Shown: positions 36,827-59,047 of the stretch, in pieces
Layout of the letters: each line of letters begins with the position of its first letter
How positions within the stretch are numbered: the stretch's first letter is position 1
NCBI GenBank assembly: GCA_019058365.1
Contig: JAHPZE010000010.1
Span: 1 to 64,000 of the forward strand
Direction: 5' to 3'
Source of the DNA: Promethearchaeota archaeon
GTDB lineage: Archaea > Asgardarchaeota > Lokiarchaeia > Sigyniarchaeales > SOKP01
DNA length: 64,000 bases
Translations under genes and position numbers: made by a program
Notes under the pieces: generated by a model
The model's input: the letters and a program-made list of their open reading frames with translations, nothing else
Databases searched by the model: none
What the model was told of the DNA's origin: nothing

Positions 36827-37693
36827 TTATTTTAACAAATCTTTTTTTGACAAATAATTTCTATTATAATAATGAATAACACCCATTCCCGCAGTTCGGT
36901 TTACTCCAACATTAGTGTATTCACCAAATCGGCTTAAAATATCTAACCAGCAACAATTACTCTTATAATCTGCGTTTATGTATTCATAATCGTAAGAACG
37001 ATCTTCATCTTCTAAGAAATGCTTATAATAGAGTCTATTAATTTTTGATACTTTAAATGAAACGCTACCTATACCCCCTATAACAGGCTTCGGCTTTCCA
37101 ATATTTACTCGAACCGTTCTCATATTATAACTACTTACATACACATGTGCGTTAACCCAATTTAACAAGGTTTCACGTGCAACCTCAGAGGTCCCTTTCA
37201 TTATATCATTCCAAATATTCGCCAAATTACCGAAAAAAATTAGAGGGATCGGAAATCTAACAGGATAATCCCCCATACTGGTATTAAAAGAAACAGGACG
37301 GAAAAAGTGAATACGTAAATTGATTACGGGTTGAGCACTCTCCATAAAATCTATTGGATTTATACGCTCAAACTGTATTTTCGAAATAAAATATCGTTTT
37401 TGCCCTAAGGTTAAATATCCCTTTTCATTGGAAATAATATCATTTAGAATTGCATCGCTCAAATCATCATGATAAGTAGTAAGTATGAAGTCTAATTTAG
37501 GCATTTTGTTATGAATGATGTAATTGATCGCATACGGACGGATTTCTTCCCTCTCGTGGAATACATGAACCAGTTCGGGCTTAATCTCATGAAGCCATTT
37601 CATTATTACTGCTCTGAATACATACCCATAAGGATGCTCGTAGGGCTTGATGTGTCCGTCTTCGGGATATAGCTCGAAAGTTAATTTTAACAT
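36827..37693 (-). CDS. cas6: CRISPR endoribonuclease Cas6
   Basis: Operon position; C-terminal glycine-rich GVNRTAGMGVIHYY; ferredoxin-fold-like RAMP. Confidence 0.8.
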   Translation of the reverse strand: MLKLTFELYPEDGHIKPYEHPYGYVFRAVIMKWLHEIKPELVHVFHEREEIRPYAINYIIHNKMPKLDFILTTYHDDLSDAILNDIISNEKGYLTLGQKRYFISKIQFERINPIDFMESAQPVINLRIHFFRPVSFNTSMGDYPVRFPIPLIFFGNLANIWNDIMKGTSEVARETLLNWVNAHVYVSSYNMRTVRVNIGKPKPVIGGIGSVSFKVSKINRLYYKHFLEDEDRSYDYEYINADYKSNCCWLDILSRFGEYTNVGVNRTAGMGVIHYYNRNYLSKKDLLK

Positions 37694-37707
37694 AGTATTA
37701 TCCCTTT

Positions 37708-39987
37708 TTATAAAATTAGTCCTAATTCTGAATTATAGTCTATATTAAGAAATTCGATATTTTCCGTCTTTTTGTATTTAATGATTTTTTCTTGTTTTTT
37801 TAATTCGATATATTTATAATCTGGAATAGGTAAATAGAATTTCATTAACTTATAAAAATGCCTATTCTCAATAAGGTTTACAGCCTTGTTGTAAAATTTT
37901 AGAGGAATAACCTCTTTAGAACAGAATAAATTGAAAAAAAAATCCTCTGCAGTTTTATTATATTCAAAAGGAATCATATCTTTAATGATTGAGCTAAAAG
38001 CAGATTGAATCTGCTGAGATAGTTTTTGTTCTTCCAGATTATATCCTTTCTGATATACATCATCAAGTAATTCTTGTAATTTATATTCCGATAACGTTTC
38101 TTCATTTGAAAGTGCTTTAAGTGTCTTTTTTGTTATTTCTTGAGAATATATCAAATGATCATACGGTGAGCCTTTCGAAAATACATTTAAAATTCCCAAT
38201 TTTGTTTTTTCAACATTTTTATGGCCAAGTCGATTTACTCTACCCGCTCTTTGAATAAGGGCATCTAAAGGAGCAGGTTCCGTAAATAAGACATCAAAAC
38301 TTATATCCAAAGAAACTTCAATTGCTTGGGTACCTACTAATAAATCGCAATTAATTAGCTCCTTTTCCTTCAAGTTCCTATCTCCTTGAGTGAATCTACT
38401 GTGAATTAAGATTGGATTTTTACTATGTGGTTTCAAATTTTTATATATCTCTTGGGCGGTTTTAACGGTATTACATACTACTAATACCTTTTTTCCATTT
38501 AATAATTCTTTAGTAATTAAAGCTAAATTGTCTGAAATCATTCCATCCTGAATTTTTATCTTATAACGGATCATCTGTTTAAGTAATTGATTATTCAGAT
38601 AAATAATATTTGTATTTTGTATATTTAGTCTGTCTATGATTAAAGTCTTTAGAAAAGAAGGGATTGTAGCAGACATTATAAATATTTTTGTATTAAAATA
38701 ATGAATCAAAATAGATAGCATTTCAATTATTAATGTTGTAGTTCTGACATCATAGGCATGAATCTCATCTATAATAATAAGAGAACCAGTTAATTCTGAA
38801 AATTGTTGCTCAAATCCTTTAATTTGAAAAAATACTTTAAGAATTTGAAAGGGGGTTAATATTTTTATTGGAAGATAAATCTTACGGCAAAGATCTAGTT
38901 TTTTTTTAACCTCAAATAAGATATTCTCATATGATTCATCTTCTTTAGTATCAGCTTTGTATAAATCATAGAGAAATGTATTGGTCTTACTATGCAAAAT
39001 TCCGATTAAATCCTTTTTATTAAATCCTAAAGTAAATCTTTTATACATCGCATTTATACTTGCTATATAAGGTAAAAGATAGAAAATTCGGTTAGAAAAA
39101 GTGGTGTCCATATTATTCCATGCCCATAAGAGGGCTGCTTCGGTTTTTCCGTATCCCGTAGGTGCGATAAGTATGCAATTATCATTGATGTGCTTAGTCA
39201 TATTCTGGATTTCATTTAAAATAAAGGTCTTTATCCATGGAATCTCGGATGGTAATGTTGAGATATGATAAACTCCAGCAGAAGCCAGATGATCAGATGC
39301 AGTTACGAATCCTTTCATAAAGATCCCATATCTATTATAAATTGGAGGACCATAAAAAAATCCTTCTTGTAATCTTAAATTTTTTAATTTTGTAATATCC
39401 TTTAAATACTTCTTAAGAAAGTAGAAGTATGCATCTTGATAACCTATACCAGAACGAGTGTCATCCAAATCACTTATTTTAGGTAAAGTGAAATTAGTTA
39501 GCTCTTTTCCTAAATATTCTTTAGAAAATTTTGGAATAAAATTTTTCATTATATCTGTTAAATGTTCTAAATTACCTTTTATTTCAGATAATTTTTCTTG
39601 AAATCTTTGATAACCAGGTATAATGGGAGGATCAGTTCCATATCTTAAGCGTAAATAACTTACATCTTTATGATGAGTAATGATTGCTAATGCTATTGCT
39701 TGTTTTATAGGTTCAGGATAATCTAAATATCCCACAAAGCCTGCGGATAAAACTTCATGCCTATAATTCCATTTAAATCCTTTTCCGCTCTTTGATAATA
39801 AGTTTTGAAAACCAGATGCCGCTTTTCCAAAATCATGTAAAAATATAGAATAAAAAAGATGTTCAAAAAAATCAGGAACATTACATAAATTAGGAATGGT
39901 CGGATAAATTTTTTTAATTTCTCTAAATATTTTTAAAGCGTTTTCTGTATGCTCAATAAGACTTTCATTATCTTTGGCAAGAATCAT
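37708..39987 (-). CDS. cas3: CRISPR-associated helicase/nuclease Cas3 (HD + DEAD-like)
   Basis: LHDFGKAASGFQ (HD), IAPTGYGKTEAALLWAW, IIDEIHAYD, MSATIPSFL, GTQAIEVSLDISFD, QRAGRVNRLG. Confidence 0.95.
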   Translation of the reverse strand: MILAKDNESLIEHTENALKIFREIKKIYPTIPNLCNVPDFFEHLFYSIFLHDFGKAASGFQNLLSKSGKGFKWNYRHEVLSAGFVGYLDYPEPIKQAIALAIITHHKDVSYLRLRYGTDPPIIPGYQRFQEKLSEIKGNLEHLTDIMKNFIPKFSKEYLGKELTNFTLPKISDLDDTRSGIGYQDAYFYFLKKYLKDITKLKNLRLQEGFFYGPPIYNRYGIFMKGFVTASDHLASAGVYHISTLPSEIPWIKTFILNEIQNMTKHINDNCILIAPTGYGKTEAALLWAWNNMDTTFSNRIFYLLPYIASINAMYKRFTLGFNKKDLIGILHSKTNTFLYDLYKADTKEDESYENILFEVKKKLDLCRKIYLPIKILTPFQILKVFFQIKGFEQQFSELTGSLIIIDEIHAYDVRTTTLIIEMLSILIHYFNTKIFIMSATIPSFLKTLIIDRLNIQNTNIIYLNNQLLKQMIRYKIKIQDGMISDNLALITKELLNGKKVLVVCNTVKTAQEIYKNLKPHSKNPILIHSRFTQGDRNLKEKELINCDLLVGTQAIEVSLDISFDVLFTEPAPLDALIQRAGRVNRLGHKNVEKTKLGILNVFSKGSPYDHLIYSQEITKKTLKALSNEETLSEYKLQELLDDVYQKGYNLEEQKLSQQIQSAFSSIIKDMIPFEYNKTAEDFFFNLFCSKEVIPLKFYNKAVNLIENRHFYKLMKFYLPIPDYKYIELKKQEKIIKYKKTENIEFLNIDYNSELGLIL

Positions 39988-39992
39988 ATCTA

Positions 39993-40652
39993 TTATTTAT
40001 TTTTTTGTAGGCCTAATGAATCAATATCATGAATCCAAATCCCAAAATCAAATTCAGAATCATACCAAATCTCTTCTGGGTATGGTTCCCAATTTTCAAG
40101 AATAACAAAAGGTTGCACTCCAATAGCCTCCCTTGGGATATCTTGAGTCATATACACAGGAAGAGACTGAATAATTCCTTTTATTAAAGACGAATTATAC
40201 GGAACAATTGTCTTTCCCAATTTCTTATTTTTTTCTTTAATTAAATCAATATTTTTCACTTCTAAAACTGTTGCAAGTTCTGTTGACCGTCCTAATAATA
40301 AAGGAAATTGAGGTTGTGTAAAATTTATAGTAAAGTCATGATTCTTTTGCAAATAAATGAATAAATGACATTCAAATAGATTTTCTCGTTTAATGATGTT
40401 TGATTTTGCTTCTTTTAGACTTTCTAATTCAAAAATACTTTCCAAATCGATAAATTTAGTATTATATAAGAAAATATATCCCATATTTATATCATACGGA
40501 GTTATTTGTTTCCCTGCCACACACGAGAGTAGCCCATATATTGTGGATAAGGGCGGAATCGGTATAGTTGGCTGAATGCCGATCATAAATCTCGGATATC
40601 GGAAAGAAGATGTCCAAGAATATATATGGATTCGATCTACCTTCATGTTCAC
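39993..40652 (-). CDS. cas5: Cas5 (Cas5t-like)
   Basis: WTSSFRYPRFMIGIQPTIPIPPLSTIYGLLSCVAG N-terminus; start overlaps cas7 end. Confidence 0.9.
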   Translation of the reverse strand: MNMKVDRIHIYSWTSSFRYPRFMIGIQPTIPIPPLSTIYGLLSCVAGKQITPYDINMGYIFLYNTKFIDLESIFELESLKEAKSNIIKRENLFECHLFIYLQKNHDFTINFTQPQFPLLLGRSTELATVLEVKNIDLIKEKNKKLGKTIVPYNSSLIKGIIQSLPVYMTQDIPREAIGVQPFVILENWEPYPEEIWYDSEFDFGIWIHDIDSLGLQKNK

Positions 40653-41650
40653 TTCATTAATTCAGGGATTATTTTGCTATATTCTGTTAGTATTTCTTTT
40701 ATATCAATCTTATAAATAATATTTATCTTATTTTTTTCCATTTCTTTACAAAATGATTGAATGTCTTGATCTATTGAATCCAAAAAACCTGCCCTTCTTC
40801 CTATATAGACATCTGTCAATAATTGTTCTTTATATTCAATTAAAACCTTTTTCAATGCATCTAAGTTTATTTTGAACTCATCATCTTTTTCCTCAAGAAT
40901 ATTCATAAGGATATGGTTTCCACTATTTAAAGTTGTTAATATTACGAATTTCGGGGCAACATCAGTCAAATTAGAAGCTTGTTTTGCTCCTCCATCGAAT
41001 AAATAGAGAGCTTTTAACACATCTTGAATTCTTTTTATTCTTGAGTCTTTATCTAATACAAAATTACCAGCAATTTCAGTGAGATTTTCTTTAGCATTCT
41101 CTAAATTTTCCTTACTTAAATTCTTAAAACCGGAGCGATTTTTATCGCTAAAGACACCTGCTCTGTCTAAATCAATAGAAAATATTCCCTTTAATATTGT
41201 AGAATAAAATTCATATTCAAAAGGAACTGGATCTCCCTCATGTCTCCCCATTACTGCAAAATCTGCAGTAGGTCTTTGACTGACAACTGAAATTAACGGT
41301 GACGTCTTTAAAACACTTGCTCTAGTTAATGTTTCCGAACCTTTCCCTTTAGGTGCACGCATATAACCAAAAATATCATCATCAGGATACTCTATTGGGT
41401 TCGCTTCAGTAAAAGCAATTTTCTTTTGCCGTTCGATTGGTGATAAATTCCATTTAAAATTTTGTTCCAATGTCATTCTCCACCAATATCTAAAAGCTTG
41501 TCCTGAAACATAAGGATATATCTTATTTCCTTTTCTAATGATTTTAGTTCTTGTAATATTTTCAGTACGCTCACTTGCATCTGTTCCAGCATTATTTAAT
41601 GCAGAATAAGGTGCATCAATCAAAACCAAACCATTAATATTTTTTACCAT
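40649..41650 (-). CDS. cas7: Cas7 (Cst2/DevR family)
   Basis: LVLIDAPYSALNNAGTDASERTENITRTKIIRKGNKIYPYVSGQAFRYWWR. Confidence 0.92.
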   Translation of the reverse strand: MVKNINGLVLIDAPYSALNNAGTDASERTENITRTKIIRKGNKIYPYVSGQAFRYWWRMTLEQNFKWNLSPIERQKKIAFTEANPIEYPDDDIFGYMRAPKGKGSETLTRASVLKTSPLISVVSQRPTADFAVMGRHEGDPVPFEYEFYSTILKGIFSIDLDRAGVFSDKNRSGFKNLSKENLENAKENLTEIAGNFVLDKDSRIKRIQDVLKALYLFDGGAKQASNLTDVAPKFVILTTLNSGNHILMNILEEKDDEFKINLDALKKVLIEYKEQLLTDVYIGRRAGFLDSIDQDIQSFCKEMEKNKINIIYKIDIKEILTEYSKIIPELMK

Positions 41651-41674
41651 TTTTTAACCCTCTTACTTTTTAAT

Positions 41675-43033
41675 TTAAGATTCCTCTTCAATATCTTCGA
41701 TCTCCTCTTTTATACTTTCAAAATTTTTAACTAAATACTCATGGAGTTGTTCATATAACCTAAAAAGAAGTAAATCACGAGTTTCATTCCAAGATAGTGC
41801 ATCTTCAGGAAATAAGTCTTTTACAAAATCATCAAATTTTATCAATGGTTCTTCAGGATTCGTTGAAAGTCTCTCTTTGCTAATAAGGCGTAATAAATTT
41901 CGAAAAGTAAAATAATTTTTTGCCATTTCTAATTGATGTAATCTTTTTAGGTTATTCGTTTCTTGGATAAAATCAGAGATTTTATCTCCTAATATCTTTA
42001 TCGCAGTTATTCTTTCTTCTTTCATACTCCTCACATTTTTTAAATAATAACTAATTAATGCCCAATTTCCCTCAGCTTTATGATTTTTTATATCAATAAA
42101 ATATTTTATTATTGATTTATTCTTCAGTAGATTAGTATAAACAGAATTTCTATGTTTTTTAAATGCTGTTTTAATTTGCTCATCACTAGATTCATCCTTA
42201 ATCTTGAAAAATCCTTTTCTGACAATTCTATTCCAAGCGTCATTTGCACTACACTGTTTGATATATGCTAGAAACCTAAATACAGTTGAAGGTAAATGAA
42301 AAAGTTCTAAATCAGGGCCTTGATTATAATTTGTAAAATGATAAATCGTAATTGTAGGGTTTTCTTCAAACCATTGTATATCGTACTCCAATATTAAACT
42401 TTTGGCAAAATCAAATAAGGAATTTATCGGTTGTGTTATCCCAGAATCCCAGCACCCTCCAAATTCACCTAAACTGATTTGTTCATTAATAAACTTCCTA
42501 ACTTTTGTTACCCAATATTTCATTACTAAATCTGAGCTAGATTGAATTAAAACAAGTTGACTGGATTTATAGAGAATCAAGGGGCAAAATTGTATTAAAA
42601 GAGTGCATACATTACAAAAAGATGCACCTTCTACGCCTGATGGAAAAAAATTAATAAATTTATTTGATCCTACTAAAGGTATCTGATCCTTAGTTCTAAG
42701 TGACCCAACTCGTCGTTTTCCACATGCGACGCAATTACCTTTTTCCATAAGTGGTATTACATTATTACATAACTCCTTTAAAAGTTGATAATATGCTTCT
42801 TTCTTGTTTTTTACGCTGGGATTTATAAGTTTGCTATTAGGAAATACACTATATATTATTTTATTCCATTTCTCTTTAACATAAAGATCAGAGATAAAAT
42901 CTAACTGTGTTTCAAAATCTGCTTTATCTAAATTGTATGGATTGCTTTTTTCATTTAGTATTGCTAAAGCCCATGCTCCTCCATCGACAAATGGATCGCC
43001 AGTTTTAGTATAGTATATTTTGTCTTTGGTCAT
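41675..43033 (-). CDS. cas8: Cas8, Cst1-like large subunit with zinc finger
   Basis: CVACGKRR...PLVGSNKFINFFPSGVEGASFCNVCTLLIQFCPL; position upstream of cas7. Confidence 0.85.
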   Translation of the reverse strand: MTKDKIYYTKTGDPFVDGGAWALAILNEKSNPYNLDKADFETQLDFISDLYVKEKWNKIIYSVFPNSKLINPSVKNKKEAYYQLLKELCNNVIPLMEKGNCVACGKRRVGSLRTKDQIPLVGSNKFINFFPSGVEGASFCNVCTLLIQFCPLILYKSSQLVLIQSSSDLVMKYWVTKVRKFINEQISLGEFGGCWDSGITQPINSLFDFAKSLILEYDIQWFEENPTITIYHFTNYNQGPDLELFHLPSTVFRFLAYIKQCSANDAWNRIVRKGFFKIKDESSDEQIKTAFKKHRNSVYTNLLKNKSIIKYFIDIKNHKAEGNWALISYYLKNVRSMKEERITAIKILGDKISDFIQETNNLKRLHQLEMAKNYFTFRNLLRLISKERLSTNPEEPLIKFDDFVKDLFPEDALSWNETRDLLLFRLYEQLHEYLVKNFESIKEEIEDIEEES

Positions 43034-43170: not shown

Positions 43171-44343
43171 TTATAACCAATTAATATTGTGTTTTTTTAA
43201 ATCATTATAAAGGAAGTATGAGAATATTTCAATATTTCCGTGTTCTAAATAAACAATTTTTACATTGAACTCCTTAACAAATTCTATAAGATCTCTAAAA
43301 TCACAGTGATCGCTTAATGGGAGATAATTATTTACGGGAAATTCTTTACGAAAAGAAGAATTAAATACATTTCCTGAACACATGACAACATTTACTTTTT
43401 CAGCAATTAAGCCTTTATATGGGGATTGGAACATTAAATGAGGGGGAATAAGGAGTATATAATCTCTATTTGTTAAAAAATGCTTAATATTATATTTTCC
43501 ATAAGGTTCCCATTCAGGAAAAGAAATACCATTCTCCTGTAATATTTTAGTGTTTCTTGCTATTGATTTCTCGAGAATTATTCTGTTAGTATCTTCGAGC
43601 ATATTTAAAAGAAGTTGACTCTTTCCAAATGAATACCCTAATAATATTGAAGGATTGTTCTTTTCGAGTTGTACTTCTATATTTTTTTGTAGTTCTTCTA
43701 ACAATTGATCAAAACAAGGAAATTGATATTGTGGAGATCCAAATGTGCATTCTGTAATTAAAATATCGCATGGAATAGGTTTTAATCCATGTATTATTCC
43801 CCGCTTATAGGGTAAAACCCGATCTTGAATGATATAGTCGCTAGTATAAAGGATCTTCTGAGAACCCTCAATTAATAAACTAAGAGATCCGTATGTATGT
43901 CCATTTTCTAGAATTGTCAATTCTATTCCATTATATTCTACTTTTTGGGGTAAGATTCTTTCCTTCCCTAGTAACCATAAGCATTCAGGAATAGTTAATT
44001 TATTATAAGTCCTTTGTTCCCCTATCTCTTTTGTTATTTTCGAGATGATAAATTTAGGTAGCAATTTTTCATTGAATCCTGATTTAAAGGTATTCGCAGG
44101 AATGTTTGGCAAGTGATCCATATGTGCATGGGATACGAAAATAATGTCAGCGCAAGGATTCCAACAATCAATTGCAATCAAGACGCCATCAATTTTAATA
44201 AATTTTCCATACTGTGGATCTCGTCCAATCTCTACTTTTAGTTCTTTCTCTCTCTTCAAAATACGAACTTTTTGATTCAGCTCTTTTAGAAAGATCTTAA
44301 AATCCGCCACTGGCCCTTGCATTGTCCACTTCAATTGAGACAT
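43171..44343 (-). CDS. MBL-fold (SNM1/YSH1-like) exonuclease-like protein inside cas operon
   Basis: FVSHAHMDHLPNIP (HxHxDH), ENGHTYGSLSLLIEG, ILYTSDYII, LPLSDHCDF, YLEHG. Confidence 0.85.
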   Translation of the reverse strand: MSQLKWTMQGPVADFKIFLKELNQKVRILKREKELKVEIGRDPQYGKFIKIDGVLIAIDCWNPCADIIFVSHAHMDHLPNIPANTFKSGFNEKLLPKFIISKITKEIGEQRTYNKLTIPECLWLLGKERILPQKVEYNGIELTILENGHTYGSLSLLIEGSQKILYTSDYIIQDRVLPYKRGIIHGLKPIPCDILITECTFGSPQYQFPCFDQLLEELQKNIEVQLEKNNPSILLGYSFGKSQLLLNMLEDTNRIILEKSIARNTKILQENGISFPEWEPYGKYNIKHFLTNRDYILLIPPHLMFQSPYKGLIAEKVNVVMCSGNVFNSSFRKEFPVNNYLPLSDHCDFRDLIEFVKEFNVKIVYLEHGNIEIFSYFLYNDLKKHNINWL

Positions 44344-46561: not shown

Positions 46562-47860
46562 TTAATAAAATTTTCTTCCAATTATTTCTTTCATATTTAT
46601 TAATATTGGCTTTTCGTGAAAATTCGAACTTACAAGCATAAATTGTCCCATAATCCATAATATCTTTTTTAGCTCTAATTCATGGGTCACTTTCTTTAAT
46701 ATTTGAAAATAATCCTGAAAGAATTTCCTTGAAGAGCATAAATCAGTAGTTAACTCTTTAGCAACTCTAAAAAAGGATATATCTACTTGAGAATTGGATT
46801 GATGTTTTCGTAGGAATTGACTTTCCAAATAATCTCTTAAAGTAAAATCGATTGGAGGATACATATAAATCAATTCAAAATAATCTAAAATTTCTAATTC
46901 GCACTTGTAGACAACATCTTTTAAAATCAATTTTAAGCATTCAATTGGTCTTGAAAGATAATTTTTAAAAAAACATTTTAATTCAAAGTTGGGATAATAG
47001 CTTAAAAACGAGAATAAAAACCAAGTAATACAAATCTCACATTGAATTTGATCGGTAAGCTGAGAATAATCATCAATAATTGTTATTTTTGAGATATGAT
47101 GAATAATATTATAAGAATCAGTAGAGTTATAGAGTTTGGCATAAAATTCGGGTAAGACTTTTTCAAGAACAGCCAGATTCATAATATGATTCGAAAATCC
47201 TAAGATTATTCCTATTAACCCTCCCATCCAAATCATTCTATATTTCATCGTATCTCTTCTACCAATAATTATCATCAAATGATGAGCATCCACTAAAATC
47301 AATCCTATCGCATGATTTCTTAGACAAGGATTTAAATTTTCACTATTAGATGGATAACCACATCTAGAATCAAAAAAATTATTACAAATTGATGACCTAA
47401 ATTGAGTTTGAGCATTTTTAGTAGTCTTAATCTTAGAAGATTGATGTAAATTATCAAGACATTTCCAATAATCATAATAAATGTGAGTAAAACATTTTGG
47501 ACATATCGAAATTGGAATAGATTCCAAAATTCCAGAAGTACTTGGCATCTCTAGACCGCATAAAGCACAAAATCGTTCTTTAGAAAGACACATATTCAAC
47601 TCATCAAAAAAGAACGCTAATTGACTTTTATATCCTTGAGTTATTACATCAGTATGGGGAAACCATCTCCCTATCATCGGTCTATAGGCGATCCGTTTAA
47701 TAATGCTTGAAGGATATAAATTTAATAATGATTCGTTCGCAAAATCACTTAAAACTTCTTGAATTTCCCCATTAAAAATGCCCTCCGCAACTATATCTCG
47801 ATATTTACTTATTTCAAGCAATTTTTCATTTTCCACCTTCTCTTTCTGTCTAAACGACAA
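46562..47860 (-). CDS. unknown protein with zinc-ribbon-like cysteines, first gene of the cas operon
   Basis: 432-aa ORF; FCALCGLEMPSTSGILESIPISICPKC; 29-nt gap to proposed cas1 start. Confidence 0.7.
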   Translation of the reverse strand: MSFRQKEKVENEKLLEISKYRDIVAEGIFNGEIQEVLSDFANESLLNLYPSSIIKRIAYRPMIGRWFPHTDVITQGYKSQLAFFFDELNMCLSKERFCALCGLEMPSTSGILESIPISICPKCFTHIYYDYWKCLDNLHQSSKIKTTKNAQTQFRSSICNNFFDSRCGYPSNSENLNPCLRNHAIGLILVDAHHLMIIIGRRDTMKYRMIWMGGLIGIILGFSNHIMNLAVLEKVLPEFYAKLYNSTDSYNIIHHISKITIIDDYSQLTDQIQCEICITWFLFSFLSYYPNFELKCFFKNYLSRPIECLKLILKDVVYKCELEILDYFELIYMYPPIDFTLRDYLESQFLRKHQSNSQVDISFFRVAKELTTDLCSSRKFFQDYFQILKKVTHELELKKILWIMGQFMLVSSNFHEKPILINMKEIIGRKFY

Positions 47861-47905: not shown

Positions 47906-48047
47906 TTATCCAATTATAACCATAAATACTTTCACTTATAAAGACTTCTTACTTAACATTTTTCATGGTTTAACTCTCTCTAAAAATCATCAAAAAATTT
48001 ACTCACATCAAAAACAAAACGATCTCCTAAATTCTGGATTTTTTAAA
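47906..48047. repeat. copy 1 of a ~140-bp duplicated intergenic element (upstream of 47860 gene)
   Basis: Hand alignment to 48507-48647: ~25 mismatches in ~138 nt. Confidence 0.85.
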
Positions 48048-48062
48048 CATCAATAATATAAT

Positions 48063-48099
48063 AATATAAAATAAATAGCTTCAAAAAGAGGAATAAAAT
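48063..48099 (+). repeat. solitary degenerate CRISPR repeat
   Basis: aatataaaaTAAATAGCTTCAaaaagaggaataaaat, 28/37 ungapped identity to array repeat incl. 12-nt perfect core. Confidence 0.8.
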
Positions 48100-48278
48100 C
48101 CAGCTCCCATGCTATGATCCTTTTTGTATGGAAAATTTAATTAAGAAATTTTTTATGATAGCCTGAATTTCAATAATTTTAGAAACCATATGTCATTATT
48201 TTCAACCAAGAACATTAATATATGATCTCTTAGAGTTAATATCCTGTTTCTAAATTTCCCCTTCCTTCAAATTCCATT

Positions 48279-48491
48279 TTACTCGACCAATTCATCATTA
48301 AGTTTAACAAACTTTTTTACTATAAACTCAGAATTACCATCCACTACATAAAAAAAATGATAATATAAGTCTTTCTCACCCATATTATTCACATTCATTA
48401 ATTTCACGCAGTTATTACAATACCATCTTCCATCTTCAATACATATAAATGCTGCCTCATCTCCGCATTCTTTACACACCTTCATGAACAC
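48279..48491 (-). CDS. small zinc-ribbon protein, 70 aa
   Basis: CKECGDEAAFICIEDGRWYCNNC. Confidence 0.6.
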   Translation of the reverse strand: MFMKVCKECGDEAAFICIEDGRWYCNNCVKLMNVNNMGEKDLYYHFFYVVDGNSEFIVKKFVKLNDELVE

Positions 48492-48506
48492 TAATCACCC
48501 ATCCCA

Positions 48507-48647
48507 TTATCCAATCTTAATCATAAATATTTTCACTTTTAAAACCTTCCCACTTAACATTTTTCATGTTTTAACTCGCTCCAAAAATTATTGAAAAATT
48601 TACTCGAATCAAAAATACAATAATCTCTCAAATTCTAGACTTTTAAG
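48507..48647. repeat. copy 2 of the ~140-bp duplicated intergenic element (upstream of 48491 gene)
   Basis: See 47906-48047. Confidence 0.85.
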
Positions 48648-49181
48648 ATATAAAATTTTAGACACAAAAAGATATTTAAACTTTAAAAAGGAGTTCGAGT
48701 ATGATTTTCATTTTTTTACCTAAAAACTTGAAAGAAAAAAAATGTGCTATTTAAAGGAAAATTTCACGCCTTTATTCAAAAAGAACTAAAGTTGATCATG
48801 CCATCTTATTTTTTATAGGAGAATTCGATATTCAGGATATTCTAATAAAAATTCATGAAATCTCAGATATAAATTATCGAAAATATATCTTAGATTCGAG
48901 ATATAGAATTTATCAATGTGTGTGCAATTCTCCAAGAACTCATTTTTGTCGAGCCTTTATTTAAATCTTTTTCAATCTTATAGTTCCCTCGAAACAATTT
49001 CTAAAAATTATTCTCTAATGATATCTCTTCATATAATATCCTCGCGTACATCTCTGCCCAAATATGCGAAAACTTGACTTTTGTAAAGGAAATAGTATGC
49101 CTGCATTTTGTTACTAAGATCCAAAAATGAAAAAAGCCAATTTAATATTAAGTTAGAAAGAATTAAATAAATGATTATTCA

Positions 49182-49206
49182 CTCTTATATTATATATATA
49201 TAAGAG
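49182..49206 (+). promoter_or_regulatory. inverted repeat / TATA-like leader-proximal element abutting first CRISPR repeat
   Basis: CTCTTATAT-TATATAT-ATATAAGAG, 9-bp perfect arms. Confidence 0.6.
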
Positions 49207-52200
49207 TTGAAAAGTAAATAGCTTCAGAAAGAAGATTGAAATAATAAAATAATCTAATGCTTTTTGATCTTCTTTAGTGTTGAAAAGTAAATAGCTTCAG
49301 AAAGAAGATTGAAATTAAGTCCTTTTTTGAACTTCTCCTTATTTTCAAACCCAGTTGAAAAGTAAATAGCTTCAGAAAGAAGATTGAAATCTAATCCTGG
49401 AGCCGAGGGAATTGATAATCCACCAACTGTTGAAAAGTAAATAGCTTCAGAAAGAAGATTGAAATGGTGTGGATAGATACTGATACTACAGAAATTATTT
49501 ATCAACGTTGAAAAGTAAATAGCTTCAGAAAGAAGATTGAAATTGGCTACATCTAAAGTCTGCTCTCCATACACCCGTGAGAGGTTGAAAAGTAAATAGC
49601 TTCAGAAAGAAGATTGAAATCTAATTCTATAAGAACAATAAACCCGCCCAGAAGTATACTGTTGAAAAGTAAATAGCTTCAGAAAGAAGATTGAAATTTA
49701 TCAGATTCATTCCCGCCGAATTTTTATTTGCCCCGTTGAAAAGTAAATAGCTTCAGAAAGAAGATTGAAATATAAAAACTGACAAAAAACAAATCTTTAA
49801 ATATGTGTGTTGTTGAAAAGTAAATAGCTTCAGAAAGAAGATTGAAATGAGATTTTACGTCGATTTGCAAAAACCGTGAAAAGAAGTGTTGAAAAGTAAA
49901 TAGCTTCAGAAAGAAGATTGAAATATATCAAATCGGAGTATTTCGATTCCTTTTGCCCTTATTAGTTGAAAAGTAAATAGCTTCAGAAAGAAGATTGAAA
50001 TTATGATTTATTATCTGCCGAACTATCACTTGATTGGAATGTTGAAAAGTAAATAGCTTCAGAAAGAAGATTGAAATTTAGTAAGATTTCATTTCTTACC
50101 TTTCTCTGAATTTGATGTTGAAAAGTAAATAGCTTCAGAAAGAAGATTGAAATTATCCACCCACACTTAGAACATATATACTCTTTTTTTGGGAAATGTT
50201 GAAAAGTAAATAGCTTCAGAAAGAAGATTGAAATTATGAAATATCTATAAAAACAGTATTAAGATCACTTTCATAGAGTTGAAAAGTAAATAGCTTCAGA
50301 AAGAAGATTGAAATATATTTTATTTAGAGTTCAGTTTGGTAGTAGTAATATGTTGAAAAGTAAATAGCTTCAGAAAGAAGATTGAAATTTTTTAAATGTA
50401 ATATGAAATCCTTTTCCTCCTGTAATGTTGAAAAGTAAATAGCTTCAGAAAGAAGATTGAAATTAGAAGGAGCATTATCTCCGCTTACAAACACAATAGA
50501 TGTTGAAAAGTAAATAGCTTCAGAAAGAAGATTGAAATATAAACTTTATGAATATGATAACTCATTAATAGTACAGTTGAAAAGTAAATAGCTTCAGAAA
50601 GAAGATTGAAATTAGAAGAACTCCATCCACCACCAGCACCGAAGGAGAGGTTGAAAAGTAAATAGCTTCAGAAAGAAGATTGAAATATAAATCATAAAAA
50701 TATGCTCCCCATTTTCCATATCTTAGTTGAAAAGTAAATAGCTTCAGAAAGAAGATTGAAATTCAGATCATATGACCTACGAGCAGACCGTAGATCGAAC
50801 TGTTGAAAAGTAAATAGCTTCAGAAAGAAGATTGAAATGGGATTTTGGTAATATCAATAAAGAATGGGCTCGATTAACGTTGAAAAGTAAATAGCTTCAG
50901 AAAGAAGATTGAAATTTTCCTTGATAGTATCTAGATTTATTAATTCTATATCAGTTGAAAAGTAAATAGCTTCAGAAAGAAGATTGAAATGTAATACCTT
51001 TCCTAATACGTTCGAGCATTCGTATAGGGTTGAAAAGTAAATAGCTTCAGAAAGAAGATTGAAATACACTTAAAATTATAAATTCATCTTCAGTAATATT
51101 AAATGTTGAAAAGTAAATAGCTTCAGAAAGAAGATTGAAATCTATTATGTGTTCGGCTAACATCTACATAATACCCAGTTGAAAAGTAAATAGCTTCAGA
51201 AAGAAGATTGAAATAATAAAAGGATATATCCTCCCCCAATATGTTGAAAATGTTGAAAAGTAAATAGCTTCAGAAAGAAGATTGAAATAAATTTAATTAC
51301 GATTTATTAACATTAGAGATTAATTCTACGTTGAAAAGTAAATAGCTTCAGAAAGAAGATTGAAATTATTCATAATTATTTATATAAATTCGATAAGTAT
51401 CAGCATTGTTGAAAAGTAAATAGCTTCAGAAAGAAGATTGAAATTTTGCGTAAAAAACCATTTCTGAAGTGGTATTATCTTTAGTTGAAAAGTAAATAGC
51501 TTCAGAAAGAAGATTGAAATTAACCCTCATATACTGAAGGATAAACAAATAAATCACGTTGAAAAGTAAATAGCTTCAGAAAGAAGATTGAAATCAAGGA
51601 ACCGGTAAAACTTGGACAGCAAATGCTTGGGCGTTGAAAAGTAAATAGCTTCAGAAAGAAGATTGAAATCTTCTACTGTTTTATTTTCCCATTTAGATTT
51701 TAATGTTGTTGAAAAGTAAATAGCTTCAGAAAGAAGATTGAAATATACTTTCTATCAGCGTTCTCCATTTTCACATGTAAGAGTTGAAAAGTAAATAGCT
51801 TCAGAAAGAAGATTGAAATTATATAATCACATTTAGAACATCTATATTTCTTTTTAGGGTTGAAAAGTAAATAGCTTCAGAAAGAAGATTGAAATTAACT
51901 TCTTCAATAGCTTCATTAATTTCATCGTTTTGTCTAAGGTTGAAAAGTAAATAGCTTCAGAAAGAAGATTGAAATCATTGTTCCCCACTCATATAAATAT
52001 CATCAATAAAAGTTGAAAAGTAAATAGCTTCAGAAAGAAGATTGAAATGGAATAAGATTCTTTTCTTTTGTAGCACAGGTACTAAAAGTTGAAAAGTAAA
52101 TAGCTTCAGAAAGAAGATTGAAATGATAAAAATGCAGTTGTAGCACTAACAATAAGTTTTTAAGTTGAAAAGTAAATAGCTTCAGAAAGAAGATTGAAAT

Positions 52201-55200
52201 AATTTGTTTAACTGAATAAATTGTCTCAGGATCTTCCGTGTTGAAAAGTAAATAGCTTCAGAAAGAAGATTGAAATAAAATATAAACTTGCAAAATAGGA
52301 AGGGGAGTATTTGGTTGAAAAGTAAATAGCTTCAGAAAGAAGATTGAAATATTACTTGACGCTCAATGTATTCCTTGTCATCAATTTCGTTGAAAAGTAA
52401 ATAGCTTCAGAAAGAAGATTGAAATATGTGGTATACATATTTATCTTACTGATCATTGCCACTGTTGAAAAGTAAATAGCTTCAGAAAGAAGATTGAAAT
52501 GGGCGTTATTTCAATGATGTTGCTCCAACCTTTACATCGTTGAAAAGTAAATAGCTTCAGAAAGAAGATTGAAATTCATAAAAAGAGATAAGATAAAAAA
52601 TAAGAATTTTTACGTTGAAAAGTAAATAGCTTCAGAAAGAAGATTGAAATATTCATAGGGGTATTTTGCTAGCAAACATTCTTAACGTTGAAAAGTAAAT
52701 AGCTTCAGAAAGAAGATTGAAATTTTATCAGAGATCTTCTTGTCTTTTATAGCCTCTTTATCGTTGAAAAGTAAATAGCTTCAGAAAGAAGATTGAAATG
52801 ACCATAAATTCTTCATTTATAGCATTAAGTCGAATCCCGTTGAAAAGTAAATAGCTTCAGAAAGAAGATTGAAATCACAGGGATCACGCGAGCCTCTAAC
52901 TTCGCAGCATAATTATGTTGAAAAGTAAATAGCTTCAGAAAGAAGATTGAAATACATGCGAACCAGCCATTTGCACTTCCACTAACCCATCTGTTGAAAA
53001 GTAAATAGCTTCAGAAAGAAGATTGAAATTTGGATTGCGGTCATGATGGCGACCAATTCATTATTATTTAAAGTTGAAAAGTAAATAGCTTCAGAAAGAA
53101 GATTGAAATATTATAGAATACCTTCCTAACTATGATGAATATCGTAATATGTTGAAAAGTAAATAGCTTCAGAAAGAAGATTGAAATCATTCAGATATGC
53201 GAATGGTATAGTAATCTCTTGAGTTGCGTTGAAAAGTAAATAGCTTCAGAAAGAAGATTGAAATATTATCTGAGGAAGCATCATTAGCGGCATTATCACT
53301 ACAGTTGAAAAGTAAATAGCTTCAGAAAGAAGATTGAAATTTCTCAAATCCTTCATTTCTGAGTTCGGCTTCATTTTCGCGTTGAAAAGTAAATAGCTTC
53401 AGAAAGAAGATTGAAATTTACCATAAACAACTTGGAAATTATTTGTATCAGAATGTTGAAAAGTAAATAGCTTCAGAAAGAAGATTGAAATTCTTATACT
53501 TAAAAGTCCTACTCCATTATCGATATATTGTTGAAAAGTAAATAGCTTCAGAAAGAAGATTGAAATATATTGACCAATTCTGTTAATCCAATTGGCAAAA
53601 GAATACCGTTGAAAAGTAAATAGCTTCAGAAAGAAGATTGAAATTGTAATATATTATGTCCAAACTCAAAAATTTATTACTGTTGAAAAGTAAATAGCTT
53701 CAGAAAGAAGATTGAAATTATAAAAGACAACGTGTTAAAGAAGTCATAACTGCTTTAAGTTGAAAAGTAAATAGCTTCAGAAAGAAGATTGAAATATGAG
53801 TTGGTCCATGGTATTTGTAATTGGAGATAATGGTTGAAAAGTAAATAGCTTCAGAAAGAAGATTGAAATTGCCATAAACTTCAGAATAGTATCTGAGAGT
53901 TTATTTAGTTGAAAAGTAAATAGCTTCAGAAAGAAGATTGAAATTCAAAAGAACACCTAATCTCATATAAGTCTAAAATATCGTTGAAAAGTAAATAGCT
54001 TCAGAAAGAAGATTGAAATCAAAGATGATCCACTCTGGAATTTCAACATTATCTTTGTTGAAAAGTAAATAGCTTCAGAAAGAAGATTGAAATGCTACGA
54101 TTATAATAGATAAGAACTCACTCATTTTAATCGTTGAAAAGTAAATAGCTTCAGAAAGAAGATTGAAATAAAAAGATTATACTACTATCCCAGAAGATGC
54201 ATTATATACAGAGTTGAAAAGTAAATAGCTTCAGAAAGAAGATTGAAATCACCATACAGAAAATCCTGTAAATATAGTAGAATAAGAGTTGAAAAGTAAA
54301 TAGCTTCAGAAAGAAGATTGAAATGCAACGTATCCTAAACCTAAAGGCAAAACAATTCCTATAGTTGAAAAGTAAATAGCTTCAGAAAGAAGATTGAAAT
54401 TACTGGTATCAGTGCTATAATAATTTCCGCCAAAAAGTTGAAAAGTAAATAGCTTCAGAAAGAAGATTGAAATATTAAATAATGACCAGTAAGATTAGAA
54501 AATAATACTAGTTGAAAAGTAAATAGCTTCAGAAAGAAGATTGAAATATTACAATTAAGGAATATATGCCTAAAATCAGACAAATAGTGTTGAAAAGTAA
54601 ATAGCTTCAGAAAGAAGATTGAAATTATATCTGCACCAAATATAAATTACCCGCGTCTTTTACTGTTGAAAAGTAAATAGCTTCAGAAAGAAGATTGAAA
54701 TAATATAACATAAGGTAAAGGGAAAGTATAAGATATTATCGTTGAAAAGTAAATAGCTTCAGAAAGAAGATTGAAATTAAAATCTGATATTATATTACTT
54801 CTGGCTACACTAAGGGTTGAAAAGTAAATAGCTTCAGAAAGAAGATTGAAATCTTTCTTTTTCCAAATTTATTGGAAATTTTTGGTAATGTTGAAAAGTA
54901 AATAGCTTCAGAAAGAAGATTGAAATGAAACGATTTTAAATTGTTAAAGTCTCAAGTTAAAAAGTTGAAAAGTAAATAGCTTCAGAAAGAAGATTGAAAT
55001 TTAATTGATACAATTTTGTCCCATATTAAGTCTCGAACTGTTGAAAAGTAAATAGCTTCAGAAAGAAGATTGAAATATATAAGAAAGAATAGTTCCTATT
55101 GAACCTATTATCAATGTTGAAAAGTAAATAGCTTCAGAAAGAAGATTGAAATTACACTATAAGTATAATGAATGGTTCTTATATCCTCTTGGTTGAAAAG

Positions 55201-55684
55201 TAAATAGCTTCAGAAAGAAGATTGAAATTTTTAACGATTTCTCTATTCATTTTACGTTCTTTTTTCAGTTGAAAAGTAAATAGCTTCAGAAAGAAGATTG
55301 AAATTGATTTTCTCCCCCGCAGGAACATTGGCATTTTTCAGGTTCGTTGAAAAGTAAATAGCTTCAGAAAGAAGATTGAAATATCCAAAACTCTCTCGTC
55401 CCCGCTGTCGCTTGCGTTTCATGTTGAAAAGTAAATAGCTTCAGAAAGAAGATTGAAATATCGAAATTTTTCATCACCTTTTTATTTCCACTGCAGTTGA
55501 AAAGTAAATAGCTTCAGAAAGAAGATTGAAATTGAAAATAATGAATATTATTACTGAATTAAACCCTTCTGAGTTGAAAAGTAAATAGCTTCAGAAAGAA
55601 GATTGAAATTATTTTATCCCTTTTTTTGCTTTAATTTTATCTTTTCCGTTGAAAAGTAAATAGCTTCAGAAAGAAGATTGAAAT

Positions 55685-55948
55685 GAATGAAGCATTTTAA
55701 TATATTTTTTTACATCTCTTTCGTTGAAAAGTAAATAGCTTCAGAAAGAAGATTGAAATGATAGAATTGCCATCGAGAGAAGAATCAATGTAATTAAGTT
55801 GAAAAGTAAATAGCTTCAGAAAGAAGATTGAAATAAGGGCACTATAACCTCAATCGGTTCCTCGATTATTGGGTTGAAAAGTAAATAGCTTCAGAAAGAA
55901 GATTGAAATTAGTATAAAAGTATGATCATGAGGGACTAATAAATTAGT
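55685..55948 (+). repeat. first copy of a four-spacer block duplicated within the array
   Basis: 264 nt, appears identical to 56442-56705 by eye. Confidence 0.95.
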
Positions 55949-56441
55949 GTTGAAAAGTAAATAGCTTCAGAAAGAAGATTGAAATTAGCCCATATCTTAA
56001 GTTGGTCAGCTCCATCCCCAAGTTGAAAAGTAAATAGCTTCAGAAAGAAGATTGAAATATCGATAAATGCTTCCCATCCAAACAAAACCCCACCAAATGT
56101 CGAAAAGTAAATAGCTTCAGAAAGAAGATTGAAATTACATAAGCCAATAAAACCCGCTTGATTTTGCGCTATTGTCGAAAAGTAAATAGCTTCAGAAAGA
56201 AGATTGAAATTTGATTGCTTGTAATAATGTATAAATATCTAATTCATGTGTCGAAAAGTAAATAGCTTCAGAAAGAAGATTGAAATGGAAATCAGTAATA
56301 TCCAGATGAGCCTGACCGATGACATGCGTCGAAAAGTAAATAGCTTCAGAAAGAAGATTGAAATAATTACTTGTTCCATTCCAAATATGAGCCCACTCAT
56401 TAGTGTCGAAAAGTAAATAGCTTCAGAAAGAAGATTGAAAT

Positions 56442-56705
56442 GAATGAAGCATTTTAATATATTTTTTTACATCTCTTTCGTTGAAAAGTAAATAGCTTCA
56501 GAAAGAAGATTGAAATGATAGAATTGCCATCGAGAGAAGAATCAATGTAATTAAGTTGAAAAGTAAATAGCTTCAGAAAGAAGATTGAAATAAGGGCACT
56601 ATAACCTCAATCGGTTCCTCGATTATTGGGTTGAAAAGTAAATAGCTTCAGAAAGAAGATTGAAATTAGTATAAAAGTATGATCATGAGGGACTAATAAA
56701 TTAGT
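56442..56705 (+). repeat. second copy of the four-spacer block
   Basis: Same four spacers in same order as 55685-55948. Confidence 0.95.
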
Positions 56706-57230
56706 GTTGAAAAGTAAATAGCTTCAGAAAGAAGATTGAAATATTTAAATAATATGTTATTCAACTATACCTTTTTCTATAATGTCGAAAAGTAAATAGC
56801 TTCAGAAAGAAGATTGAAATTATGTTTTTTCATGACTTCATAAGCATGTGGAGTAATAGTTGAAAAGTAAATAGCTTCAGAAAGAAGATTGAAATTTAGT
56901 TTTTTTATCCGGGATGATTTCTTTTTTTGAATCGTTGAAAAGTAAATAGCTTCAGAAAGAAGATTGAAATAAAATACCACGCCCTTTCTGTCTCAAACTC
57001 TAAAAGTGTTGAAAAGTAAATAGCTTCAGAAAGAAGATTGAAATGTTCCCTGTCCTGTGTCTCCCATGCGACCACGACCTTTAGTCGAAAAGTAAATAGC
57101 TTCAGAAAGAAGATTGAAATTCAGGATATTTTTCTAACAAAGGAAGTCCTAAATGTGTTGAAAAGTAAATAGCTTCAGAAAGAAGATTGAAATTTAATCT
57201 CGTTCTTTTTAACATCTATAGAATTATATA

Positions 57231-57385: not shown

Positions 57386-59047
57386 ATGGCTATAGAAAGA
57401 ATTCTAGCGATTTATGACATTTTAGGTATTCAAGATTTTATATTTTCAGCAAATAAGCTTAAAGAGAATTTAGGTGGGTCTATCATTGTTCAAGAAACAT
57501 TTGAAAACGATTTATGTGAAATAATTATAGACAATTGTAATAATCCTTTAATAAATATTCAAAACAGTGATATTGATTGGGAAAAAAATAGTCATGATGC
57601 AGTTGTTGTATATTATAGAGGTGGAAATGCATTAGTCATTTTTAATGATATTGAAACAGCAAAACTGATTACTGAAAAATTAGCTCTTAAAGTGTTAAAT
57701 AATTCAGGTGGTTTGCTTAACTTTATGGTGGCCTATTATCCCTCAAAATTAAAGAATTTTCAAGATGATTTTCGCAAACTTATGTTAGACCTTAAGAATA
57801 AAAAAAATTCTCATATACTTACCACACCTCTTTTAGGAATAGGAATTACGAAAACCGATCTGTCAAGTGGTTTACCTGCATTTAAGATATATGAGAGGGA
57901 TTTTATTTCGAAGCCCTCTTTATTAAAAAGGAAAAAAGCAGAAAAACAGTTGAAAACAGATGGGAAGAAAAGGTATTATGACTTTTTGCTAAAGAATATT
58001 AAAGCTGAATATGACTTTCCTTTAGATTTAGATGATCTAGGGCAAAAGATAGGAGAAAAATATGTAGCTATTGTACATATCGATGGAGATAATATGGGGC
58101 AAAAAATTCAAACTTTTTTAGATAAAACTCATGATAATTACAACGAAACCATATATAGAATGAGCATGCTTTCTAGAAAAATTGATGATTTATACCGAAC
58201 AGTGATGAGAAAAGTTGTTGAGGATGTTGCTAAAATCTTAAAAGATGATAAATTTCGGAAAATGTTTGAAATTAAAAAAATAAAAGATACTGATAAAGAA
58301 TTCTTACCAATTAGGCCTATTATTTTAAATGGAGATGATATTACTTTTGTTTGTAATGGTAAAATAGGTATCAATTTAGCAGAGATATTCCTCAAAAAAC
58401 TTGCAAAATCAGAATTAAGAATATCTGGAGAGATCATAGAACATTCTGCGAGTGCGGGAGTTGTAATCGTTAAATCACATTTTCCTTTTGATAAAGCTTA
58501 TACAATAGTAGAAGAGCTCTGTAAATCTGCTAAAATTAAAGGAAAAATATTGCAAGAACAACATGAAGAAGAAAGAAAACGAGGGTTCTGGTTAGATTTT
58601 CATGTTATTCAATCGGGGCTTACATCAGATTTGAGCGAAACAAGAAAGAATCAATATAATCTTTCAGATATACCTCATCCAGACAAATTAGTATCTCCAA
58701 CCAGCCAAATACATTATCAACAGTATAATCTATTGTGGAGACCTTGGTTAATTATAGGTGAAAATCATTTAAATCGTTATAATTGGTCCCATTTAAAATC
58801 TCTCTTATATGAATTTAATAGTTCTAAAGAAGATTGGCCAAAATCTAAACTAAAAAAATTACATCAATTATTAACAATTTCTAAGGATAAAGTGGATGGA
58901 TTTTTATTAAGAATGGAAAGCAGAGACATAAAACTTCCAAATTTTTTAAATGATAATATAATTTTTTATAATGGGCAAACTCCTTATTGCGATGCCTTAG
59001 AGATAATGGATTATTATTATATAGAAATGAAGGAGCTCTTAAAATGA
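57386..59047 (+). CDS. cas10: Cas10-family protein, compact, without recognisable HD domain (type III-D-like)
   Basis: AIYDILGIQDFIFSANKLKENLGGS (palm-like), VAIVHIDGDNMGQKIQ, PIRPIILNGDDITFVCNG. Confidence 0.88.
   Translation: MAIERILAIYDILGIQDFIFSANKLKENLGGSIIVQETFENDLCEIIIDNCNNPLINIQNSDIDWEKNSHDAVVVYYRGGNALVIFNDIETAKLITEKLALKVLNNSGGLLNFMVAYYPSKLKNFQDDFRKLMLDLKNKKNSHILTTPLLGIGITKTDLSSGLPAFKIYERDFISKPSLLKRKKAEKQLKTDGKKRYYDFLLKNIKAEYDFPLDLDDLGQKIGEKYVAIVHIDGDNMGQKIQTFLDKTHDNYNETIYRMSMLSRKIDDLYRTVMRKVVEDVAKILKDDKFRKMFEIKKIKDTDKEFLPIRPIILNGDDITFVCNGKIGINLAEIFLKKLAKSELRISGEIIEHSASAGVVIVKSHFPFDKAYTIVEELCKSAKIKGKILQEQHEEERKRGFWLDFHVIQSGLTSDLSETRKNQYNLSDIPHPDKLVSPTSQIHYQQYNLLWRPWLIIGENHLNRYNWSHLKSLLYEFNSSKEDWPKSKLKKLHQLLTISKDKVDGFLLRMESRDIKLPNFLNDNIIFYNGQTPYCDALEIMDYYYIEMKELLK

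What the first reader, a model, noticed from the sequence alone, without database searches (positions are those of the whole stretch)
47906..48647. Duplicated ~140-bp intergenic element upstream of the unknown cas-operon gene and a small zinc-ribbon ORF
47906-48047 and 48507-48647 align without gaps at ~82% identity (about 25 mismatches by hand), in the same orientation, each 15-45 nt upstream of a minus-strand ORF start (47860 and 48491). Weaker similarity seems to continue rightward (CTTCAAAAAGAGG..CTATGATCCTTTTT versus CTTTAAAAAGGAG..GTATGATTTTCATTTTT). Likely a shared promoter/operator linking the 70-aa zinc-ribbon protein to the cas operon, or duplicated leader DNA.
Basis: seen in the sequence. 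Interest (0 to 1): 0.7.

Follow-up and report, generated by a model that had tools for sequence, protein, structure and literature searches.

The report
Duplicated cas promoter flanking mini-CRISPR remnant
In a Lokiarchaeal genome the promoter of the CRISPR immune genes has been copied, so that one copy drives the immune genes and the other a tiny orphan zinc-protein gene, and a worn-down single CRISPR repeat lies between them, much as in known CRISPR-controlled toxin or self-regulation modules, though what this one controls is not yet known.

Summary
The duplication is real: 47906-48047 and 48507-48648 are 81% identical without gaps (115/142), same orientation, only two copies in the 4.74-Mb Lokiarchaeal genome. 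Homology stops near 48044/48645; the similarity seen further right is not a continuation. Each copy carries, on the minus strand, a TGTTAAGT-N7/8-TTTWWA box found at four places genome-wide: both copies, the cas8 promoter and one other; it also precedes cas8 in three relatives. The element is best read as a duplicated cas promoter, one copy for the 432-aa/cas1 operon, one for the orphan 70-aa zinc-ribbon gene. New here: copy 1 runs, on the plus strand, into a degenerate CRISPR repeat (48063-48099; core 24/28 against at most 19/28 elsewhere outside arrays) that keeps its hairpin, followed by a ~21-nt pseudo-spacer and T5. Copy 2 runs into the true leader, which has motifs at fixed distances (-512, -257, -219) in relatives. 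Two relatives carry two-repeat mini-CRISPRs plus a small ORF before cas8; their pseudo-spacers match the ORF's promoter or start beside a CCA PAM (one with a perfect seed). The window unit is probably a CreTA/CreR-like island, but no target was found for its pseudo-spacer, so membership is not claimed.

The parts
47906..48053 (-). Copy 1 of the duplicated element; carries the presumed promoter of the 432-aa/cas1-cas2-cas4 operon (read on the minus strand). Clear homology to copy 2 ends near 48044.
48507..48654 (-). Copy 2 of the duplicated element; presumed promoter of the 70-aa ORF. Clear homology ends near 48645.
47937..47958 (-). Cas-promoter box in copy 1: TGTTAAGT AAGAAGTC TTTATA
48538..48559 (-). 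Cas-promoter box in copy 2: TGTTAAGT GGGAAGG TTTTAAA
43064..43085 (-). Third occurrence of the box, in the cas8 promoter: TGTTAAGT CCTAAGA TTTTAAA
48063..48099 (+). Degenerate CRISPR repeat (psi-repeat), 28/37 to the array repeat, 24/28 over its 3' part; 4-bp stem, 5-nt loop and 8-nt 3' handle kept (CTTC/GAGG with one G-U)
48100..48125 (+). Pseudo-spacer CCAGCTCCCATGCTATGATCC and following T5 (possible terminator); no target satisfying a type I seed rule found
48279..48491 (-). Orphan 70-aa ORF, weak B-box-type zinc-finger match; no homologue in 60 relatives or in viral contigs
46562..47860 (-). 432-aa first gene of the cas operon; Cys-rich; member of a family next to CRISPR arrays in eight Lokiarchaeal genomes; no Pfam, NCBIfam, PADLOC or PDB-fold match
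48672..49205 (+). True CRISPR leader, starting at the conserved -512 element (TATTTAAAC...TTCGAG, 48673-48699), with TCGAG at -258 and CTCGA at -219
49206..57193 (+). CRISPR array, 37-nt repeat GTTGAAAAGTAAATAGCTTCAGAAAGAAGATTGAAAT (variant GTCGAAAAG... in some distal repeats)

Best explanation
The element is a duplicated promoter of the type I-B cas locus, read leftwards. Copy 1 drives the 432-aa/cas1/cas2/cas4 operon; copy 2 drives the orphan 70-aa zinc-ribbon gene, placing it under the same control as cas genes. The segment between the copies also holds a one-repeat degenerate mini-CRISPR on the plus strand, next to copy 1. Inferred mechanism: this unit is transcribed into a crRNA-like RNA that Cas6 can process through the retained hairpin and 8-nt handle, and that loads into the Cascade complex to repress a promoter by partial complementarity, as CreA or CreR RNAs do. 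Shown: duplication, box, degenerate repeat, predicted hairpin, analogous islands in two relatives. Inferred: transcription, processing, Cascade loading, regulation. Not found: the target.
For: Two copies only, 81% identical. The TGTTAAGT-N7/8-TTTWWA box occurs at four places in 4.74 Mb, three of them at this cas locus, none expected per 64 kb under a Markov null, and it precedes cas8 in three relatives. The degenerate repeat scores 24/28, against at most 19/28 elsewhere in the window outside arrays, and beats all 2000 Markov nulls; its substitutions cluster in the first 9 nt and the only one in the stem keeps pairing by G-U. In two relatives, mini-CRISPRs of two degenerate repeats 60 nt apart (score 42, null maximum 36) follow a 55- or 80-aa ORF just before cas8. 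In L038 the pseudo-spacer matches that ORF's promoter at 19/23, with seed positions 1-5 and 7-11 perfect, position 6 mismatched and a CCA PAM (p=0.0055). In L036 it is 9/10 of the seed with CCA at the ORF start (p=0.0035). The seed rule is the published one for CreA (PMC8501985).
Against: No seed-rule target for the window's pseudo-spacer in the intergenic region, near cas promoters or genome-wide. The best local match, at the 70-aa gene's start, is 14/21, lies outside the seed and is only marginally unlikely (p 0.008-0.086). Only one repeat is recognisable, and it lies on the strand opposite to the 70-aa ORF, unlike in L036 and L038. No close relative of this locus was available, so selection on the repeat or the box could not be tested. 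The box pattern was written after seeing the sites. No transcription data.
Confidence: 0.5

Rival explanations
1. Promoter duplication plus inert relic: the cas promoter was duplicated together with the first repeat of the array or of a neo-array; the leader was lost and the repeat is decaying without function. The 70-aa gene simply gained a cas-like promoter.
For: No target for the pseudo-spacer; single repeat; the AT-rich run before it resembles the leader end (sequence); the upstream leader element is also duplicated in another relative, L039, without a repeat.
Against: Changes spare the hairpin and most of the 3' part of the repeat; two relatives have clearly guide-like mini-CRISPRs in their cas loci.
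Confidence: 0.3
2. The 148-nt element is itself a plus-strand creT-like gene: an ORF of 51 codons (ATG 47901 to stop 48056) ends 7 nt before the degenerate repeat, as the small ORFs in L036 and L038 precede their mini-CRISPRs. Copy 2 would be a dead duplicate.
For: ORF position and order match L036 (ORF 6285-6452, repeat from 6451) and L038.
Against: Differences between the copies fall 13/10/6 on codon positions 1/2/3, no sign of coding constraint; copy 2 has an in-frame stop (sequence); the cas-specific box reads on the other strand; a profile of the L036 and L038 ORFs found nothing in this genome.
Confidence: 0.08
3. The element is an operator bound by the 70-aa zinc protein, which autoregulates and controls the cas operon.
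For: Shared element upstream of both genes; B-box-like Cys pattern.
Against: The box also precedes cas8 in G007 and G029, which lack the 70-aa gene, so another factor must use it there.
Confidence: 0.1

Closest known systems
CreTA modules of type I-B systems (Haloarcula and other haloarchaea; PMC8501985, PMC9458426)
   Same: Degenerated repeat(s) outside the array inside a cas locus, with a small gene nearby; repeat changes concentrated at the 5' end; hairpin and 8-nt handle positions kept; a one-repeat form ending at a terminator is known from H. hispanica
   Different: Target of the pseudo-spacer not found; the repeat lies on the strand opposite to the small ORF; the small ORF is a 70-aa zinc-ribbon protein rather than a toxic RNA; located before the cas1 operon; host is a Lokiarchaeon
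CreR, the crRNA-like autorepressor of cas operons (reviewed in PMC12737573)
   Same: Single degenerate mini-CRISPR directly upstream of a cas operon promoter
   Different: No seed match to any cas promoter found
CrePA (protein toxin repressed by CreA-guided Cascade; reviewed in PMC12737573)
   Same: Small protein-coding gene beside a mini-CRISPR; fits the two relatives L036 and L038 best
   Different: No known toxin domain found in the small ORFs; toxicity untested; no target in the window case

Membership tests
CreTA/CrePA | Degenerate CRISPR repeat outside the array in a cas locus | tested here: met
   48063-48099, 28/37 and 24/28 of the core
CreTA/CrePA | Hairpin and 8-nt handle position needed for Cas6 processing retained | tested here: met
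   Same 4-bp stem, 5-nt loop and 8-nt tail predicted; actual processing not tested
CreTA/CrePA | Pseudo-spacer seed (positions 1-5 and 7-11) matches the promoter of the toxin gene next to a PAM | tested here: not met
   Window: best seed 8/10 locally, none at the 70-aa promoter. Met in relative L038 and nearly in L036
CreTA/CrePA | Neighbouring gene is toxic when Cascade is absent | not testable with these tools
   Needs an expression experiment
CreR | Pseudo-spacer matches a cas-operon promoter | tested here: not met
   Promoter regions of the 432-aa, cas1, cas2/4, MBL, cas8, cas6 and type III genes scanned, no seed match
CreR | RNA represses cas transcription through Cascade | not testable with these tools
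   Needs a reporter assay
CRISPR leader | Element lies directly upstream of the array repeat and carries the leader motifs | tested here: not met
   Leader motifs at -512, -257, -219 lie in 48672-49205, outside the element
cas promoter of this locus | Shares a specific box plus TATA with other cas promoters of the locus and of relatives | tested here: met
Dispersed repeat or mobile element | Further copies elsewhere in the genome | tested here: not met
   Two copies only

The most novel reading that the evidence does not exclude
Lokiarchaea carry CreTA/CrePA-type islands, in which a crRNA-like RNA from a degenerated mini-CRISPR directs Cascade to hold down a small resident gene beside the cas promoters. 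In the window species such an island was built by duplicating the cas promoter itself, so that an orphan zinc-ribbon protein shares cas control.
Probability: 0.35. Interest if true: 0.7.

Novelty: new variant of a known kind. Interest (0 to 1): 0.5.

Why it matters
CRISPR-derived regulatory and addiction modules are documented in haloarchaea and bacteria; a search of the held papers gave none that treats them in Asgard archaea. If the islands here work, they extend RNA-guided self-control and addiction of CRISPR systems to the archaeal lineage nearest eukaryotes. The perfect-seed case in relative L038 gives a directly testable prediction of PAM (CCA), guide and target. A cas-specific promoter box would also give a handle on cas regulation in Lokiarchaea.

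Tried and rejected
Rightward continuation of the duplication: rejected, identity falls to background after about 48045. Copy 2 also followed by a degenerate repeat: rejected, score at chance; it is the -512 leader element. Second degenerate repeat behind the window pseudo-spacer: best partner only 15/28 of the core, chance level. Other degenerate repeats suggested by BLAST on contigs C34 and C35: rejected, core scores at most 19/28. Targets of the pseudo-spacer in the intergenic region, near cas promoters and genome-wide: none convincing; exact search in viral contigs: none. Protospacers of the array in phage records, to learn the PAM: nothing usable. Rfam: nothing relevant. Coding reading of the element: no codon-position signal. 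More islands through the small ORFs: none convincing among 86 genomes. Mini-CRISPRs in more distant Cas8 relatives (L042, L070, L071): none seen, but their repeats are unknown. Structure of the 432-aa protein: medium confidence (mean pLDDT 61), no PDB fold match. Mini-CRISPRs in the relatives L035, L037, L039, L040, L041: none found.

Full report
OBSERVATION. The two copies are real. Random ungapped pairs in this window reach at most 56%. The relatives that share the locus are labelled Candidatus Lokiarchaeota. Sliding identity at the 601 offset drops to background after about 48045, so the similarity noted further right is not part of the duplication.

WHAT THE COPIES ARE. On the minus strand each copy holds TGTTAAGT, then 7-8 nt, then a TATA-like TTTWWA. 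In the 64-kb window this combination occurs at three sites: copy 1, copy 2 and the cas8 promoter. In the whole genome there is only one further site; a second-order Markov null gives none per 64 kb. The pattern was written after seeing the sites, but three other genomes repeat the box before cas8 (L035, as TATTAAGT; L036; L038), and L036 has a second box at the start of its island. By archaeal promoter geometry (general knowledge: start about 25 nt after TATA) copy 1 would start transcripts near 47913 for the 432-aa/cas1 operon and copy 2 near 48514 for the 70-aa ORF. The simplest reading is a duplicated cas promoter.

WHAT LIES NEXT TO THEM. Copy 2 abuts the leader of the array at 49206. In eight genomes sharing this adaptation locus the leader keeps motifs at nearly fixed distances from the first repeat: TTCGAG near -512, TCGAG near -257, CTCGA near -219, with weaker forms in L036. 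Copy 1 abuts something else: 48063-48099 matches the array repeat at 28/37, and at 24/28 over its 3' part, where the best non-array site elsewhere in the window scores 19/28. Its local alignment score exceeds all 2000 Markov nulls. Five of nine changes lie in the first nine bases; the one change in the stem keeps pairing by G-U, so the 4-bp hairpin and the 8-nt tail are predicted unchanged. Published work describes CreA repeats as extensively degenerated, the first more than the second, with the adaptation signals lost (PMC9458426). A 21-nt pseudo-spacer and TTTTT follow.

RELATIVES. A scan of the homologous loci found two further ectopic mini-CRISPRs, in G057 (L036: repeats at 6451 and 6511) and G029 (L038, minus strand: 5367 and 5307), each of two degenerate repeats 60 nt apart between the MBL-nuclease gene and cas8. 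The pair score is 42 against a null maximum of 36. Each follows a small ORF, of 55 aa (L036 6285-6452) and 80 aa (L038 5400-5642), weakly alike (E=0.002 as a single comparison). In L038 the pseudo-spacer matches the ORF's promoter at 19/23, with positions 1-5 and 7-11 all paired, position 6 mismatched, and CCA as PAM (p=0.0055 on the total alone). These are exactly the positions shown to matter for CreA (PMC8501985). In L036 the best PAM-bearing site, also CCA, overlaps the start codon, with 9/10 seed positions (p=0.0035). The ORF in L036 may be shortened, since similarity to the L038 protein runs on upstream through stops. L035, L037, L039, L040 and L041 show no such unit. So CreTA/CrePA-like islands probably exist in this group, present in some species and absent in others.

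THE WINDOW UNIT. By analogy the window island (promoter copy 2, 70-aa gene, mini-CRISPR, promoter copy 1, cas operon) would be one of this kind. But its pseudo-spacer has no seed-rule target near any cas promoter, at the 70-aa gene or elsewhere. The best local match, 14/21 at the 70-aa gene's start, lacks the seed and is marginal. The repeat also lies on the strand opposite to the 70-aa ORF. It therefore fails the defining target test of CreTA and of CreR as applied here, and is not filed as a member; it may still work like one, with a target or PAM not recognised, or be a relic. The window's effector differs from that of the relatives: Cas8b1/Cst1 with Cst2/DevR-type Cas7 and Cas5t against Cas8b/TM1802, so its PAM may differ.

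THE TWO GENES. The 432-aa protein belongs to a family found beside arrays in eight Lokiarchaeal genomes, with eight invariant cysteines, no family match and no PDB fold match. The 70-aa ORF has a sub-threshold B-box match (E=5.5e-4) and no homologue in 60 relatives or in viral contigs.

CONFIDENCE. Duplication about 1.0; cas promoter reading about 0.8; degenerate repeat genuine about 0.9; repeat functional as a guide about 0.4; island of the CreTA/CrePA kind in L038 about 0.75 and in L036 about 0.6. These are my estimates.

Noticed in passing
L038:5307-5642 and upstream (G029:C225): Strong CreTA/CrePA-like candidate: 80-aa ORF followed by two degenerate repeats 60 nt apart before cas8; pseudo-spacer matches the ORF's promoter 19/23 with a perfect seed and a CCA PAM.
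   Followed up: partly
L036:6028-6687 (G057:C68): Second candidate island between MBL-nuclease gene and cas8: cas-promoter box, 55-aa ORF, two degenerate repeats, second box, cas8; near-perfect seed match with a CCA PAM at the ORF start.
   Followed up: partly
48672-49205 and seven homologous loci: Unusually long CRISPR leader with TCGAG/CTCGA motifs at nearly constant distances (-512, -257, -219) from the first repeat in distantly related genomes.
   Followed up: partly
L039:11084-11110 and 11528-11554: Another relative has an extra copy of the -512 leader element 444 bp upstream of the regular one, suggesting that duplications next to this leader recur.
   Followed up: partly
46562-47860: Uncharacterised Cys-rich 432-aa protein family as first gene of the cas1 operon, next to the array in eight Lokiarchaeal genomes; no known family or fold.
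   Followed up: partly
36827-43033 versus L035, L036, L038: Same repeat family and adaptation genes but a different effector: Cas8b1/Cst1 type in the window, Cas8b/TM1802 type in the relatives (module swap).
   Followed up: no
43171-44343: Metallo-beta-lactamase-fold nuclease gene (sub-cutoff matches to Xnuc_lig_assoc and beta-CASP models) inside the cas operon, with counterparts of like size at the same place in relatives.
   Followed up: no
57386-61365: Divergent type III genes (Cas10-like 553 aa; 792-aa protein with RAMP stretches) directly beyond the array; a further short array with the same repeat starts near contig position 73695.
   Followed up: no
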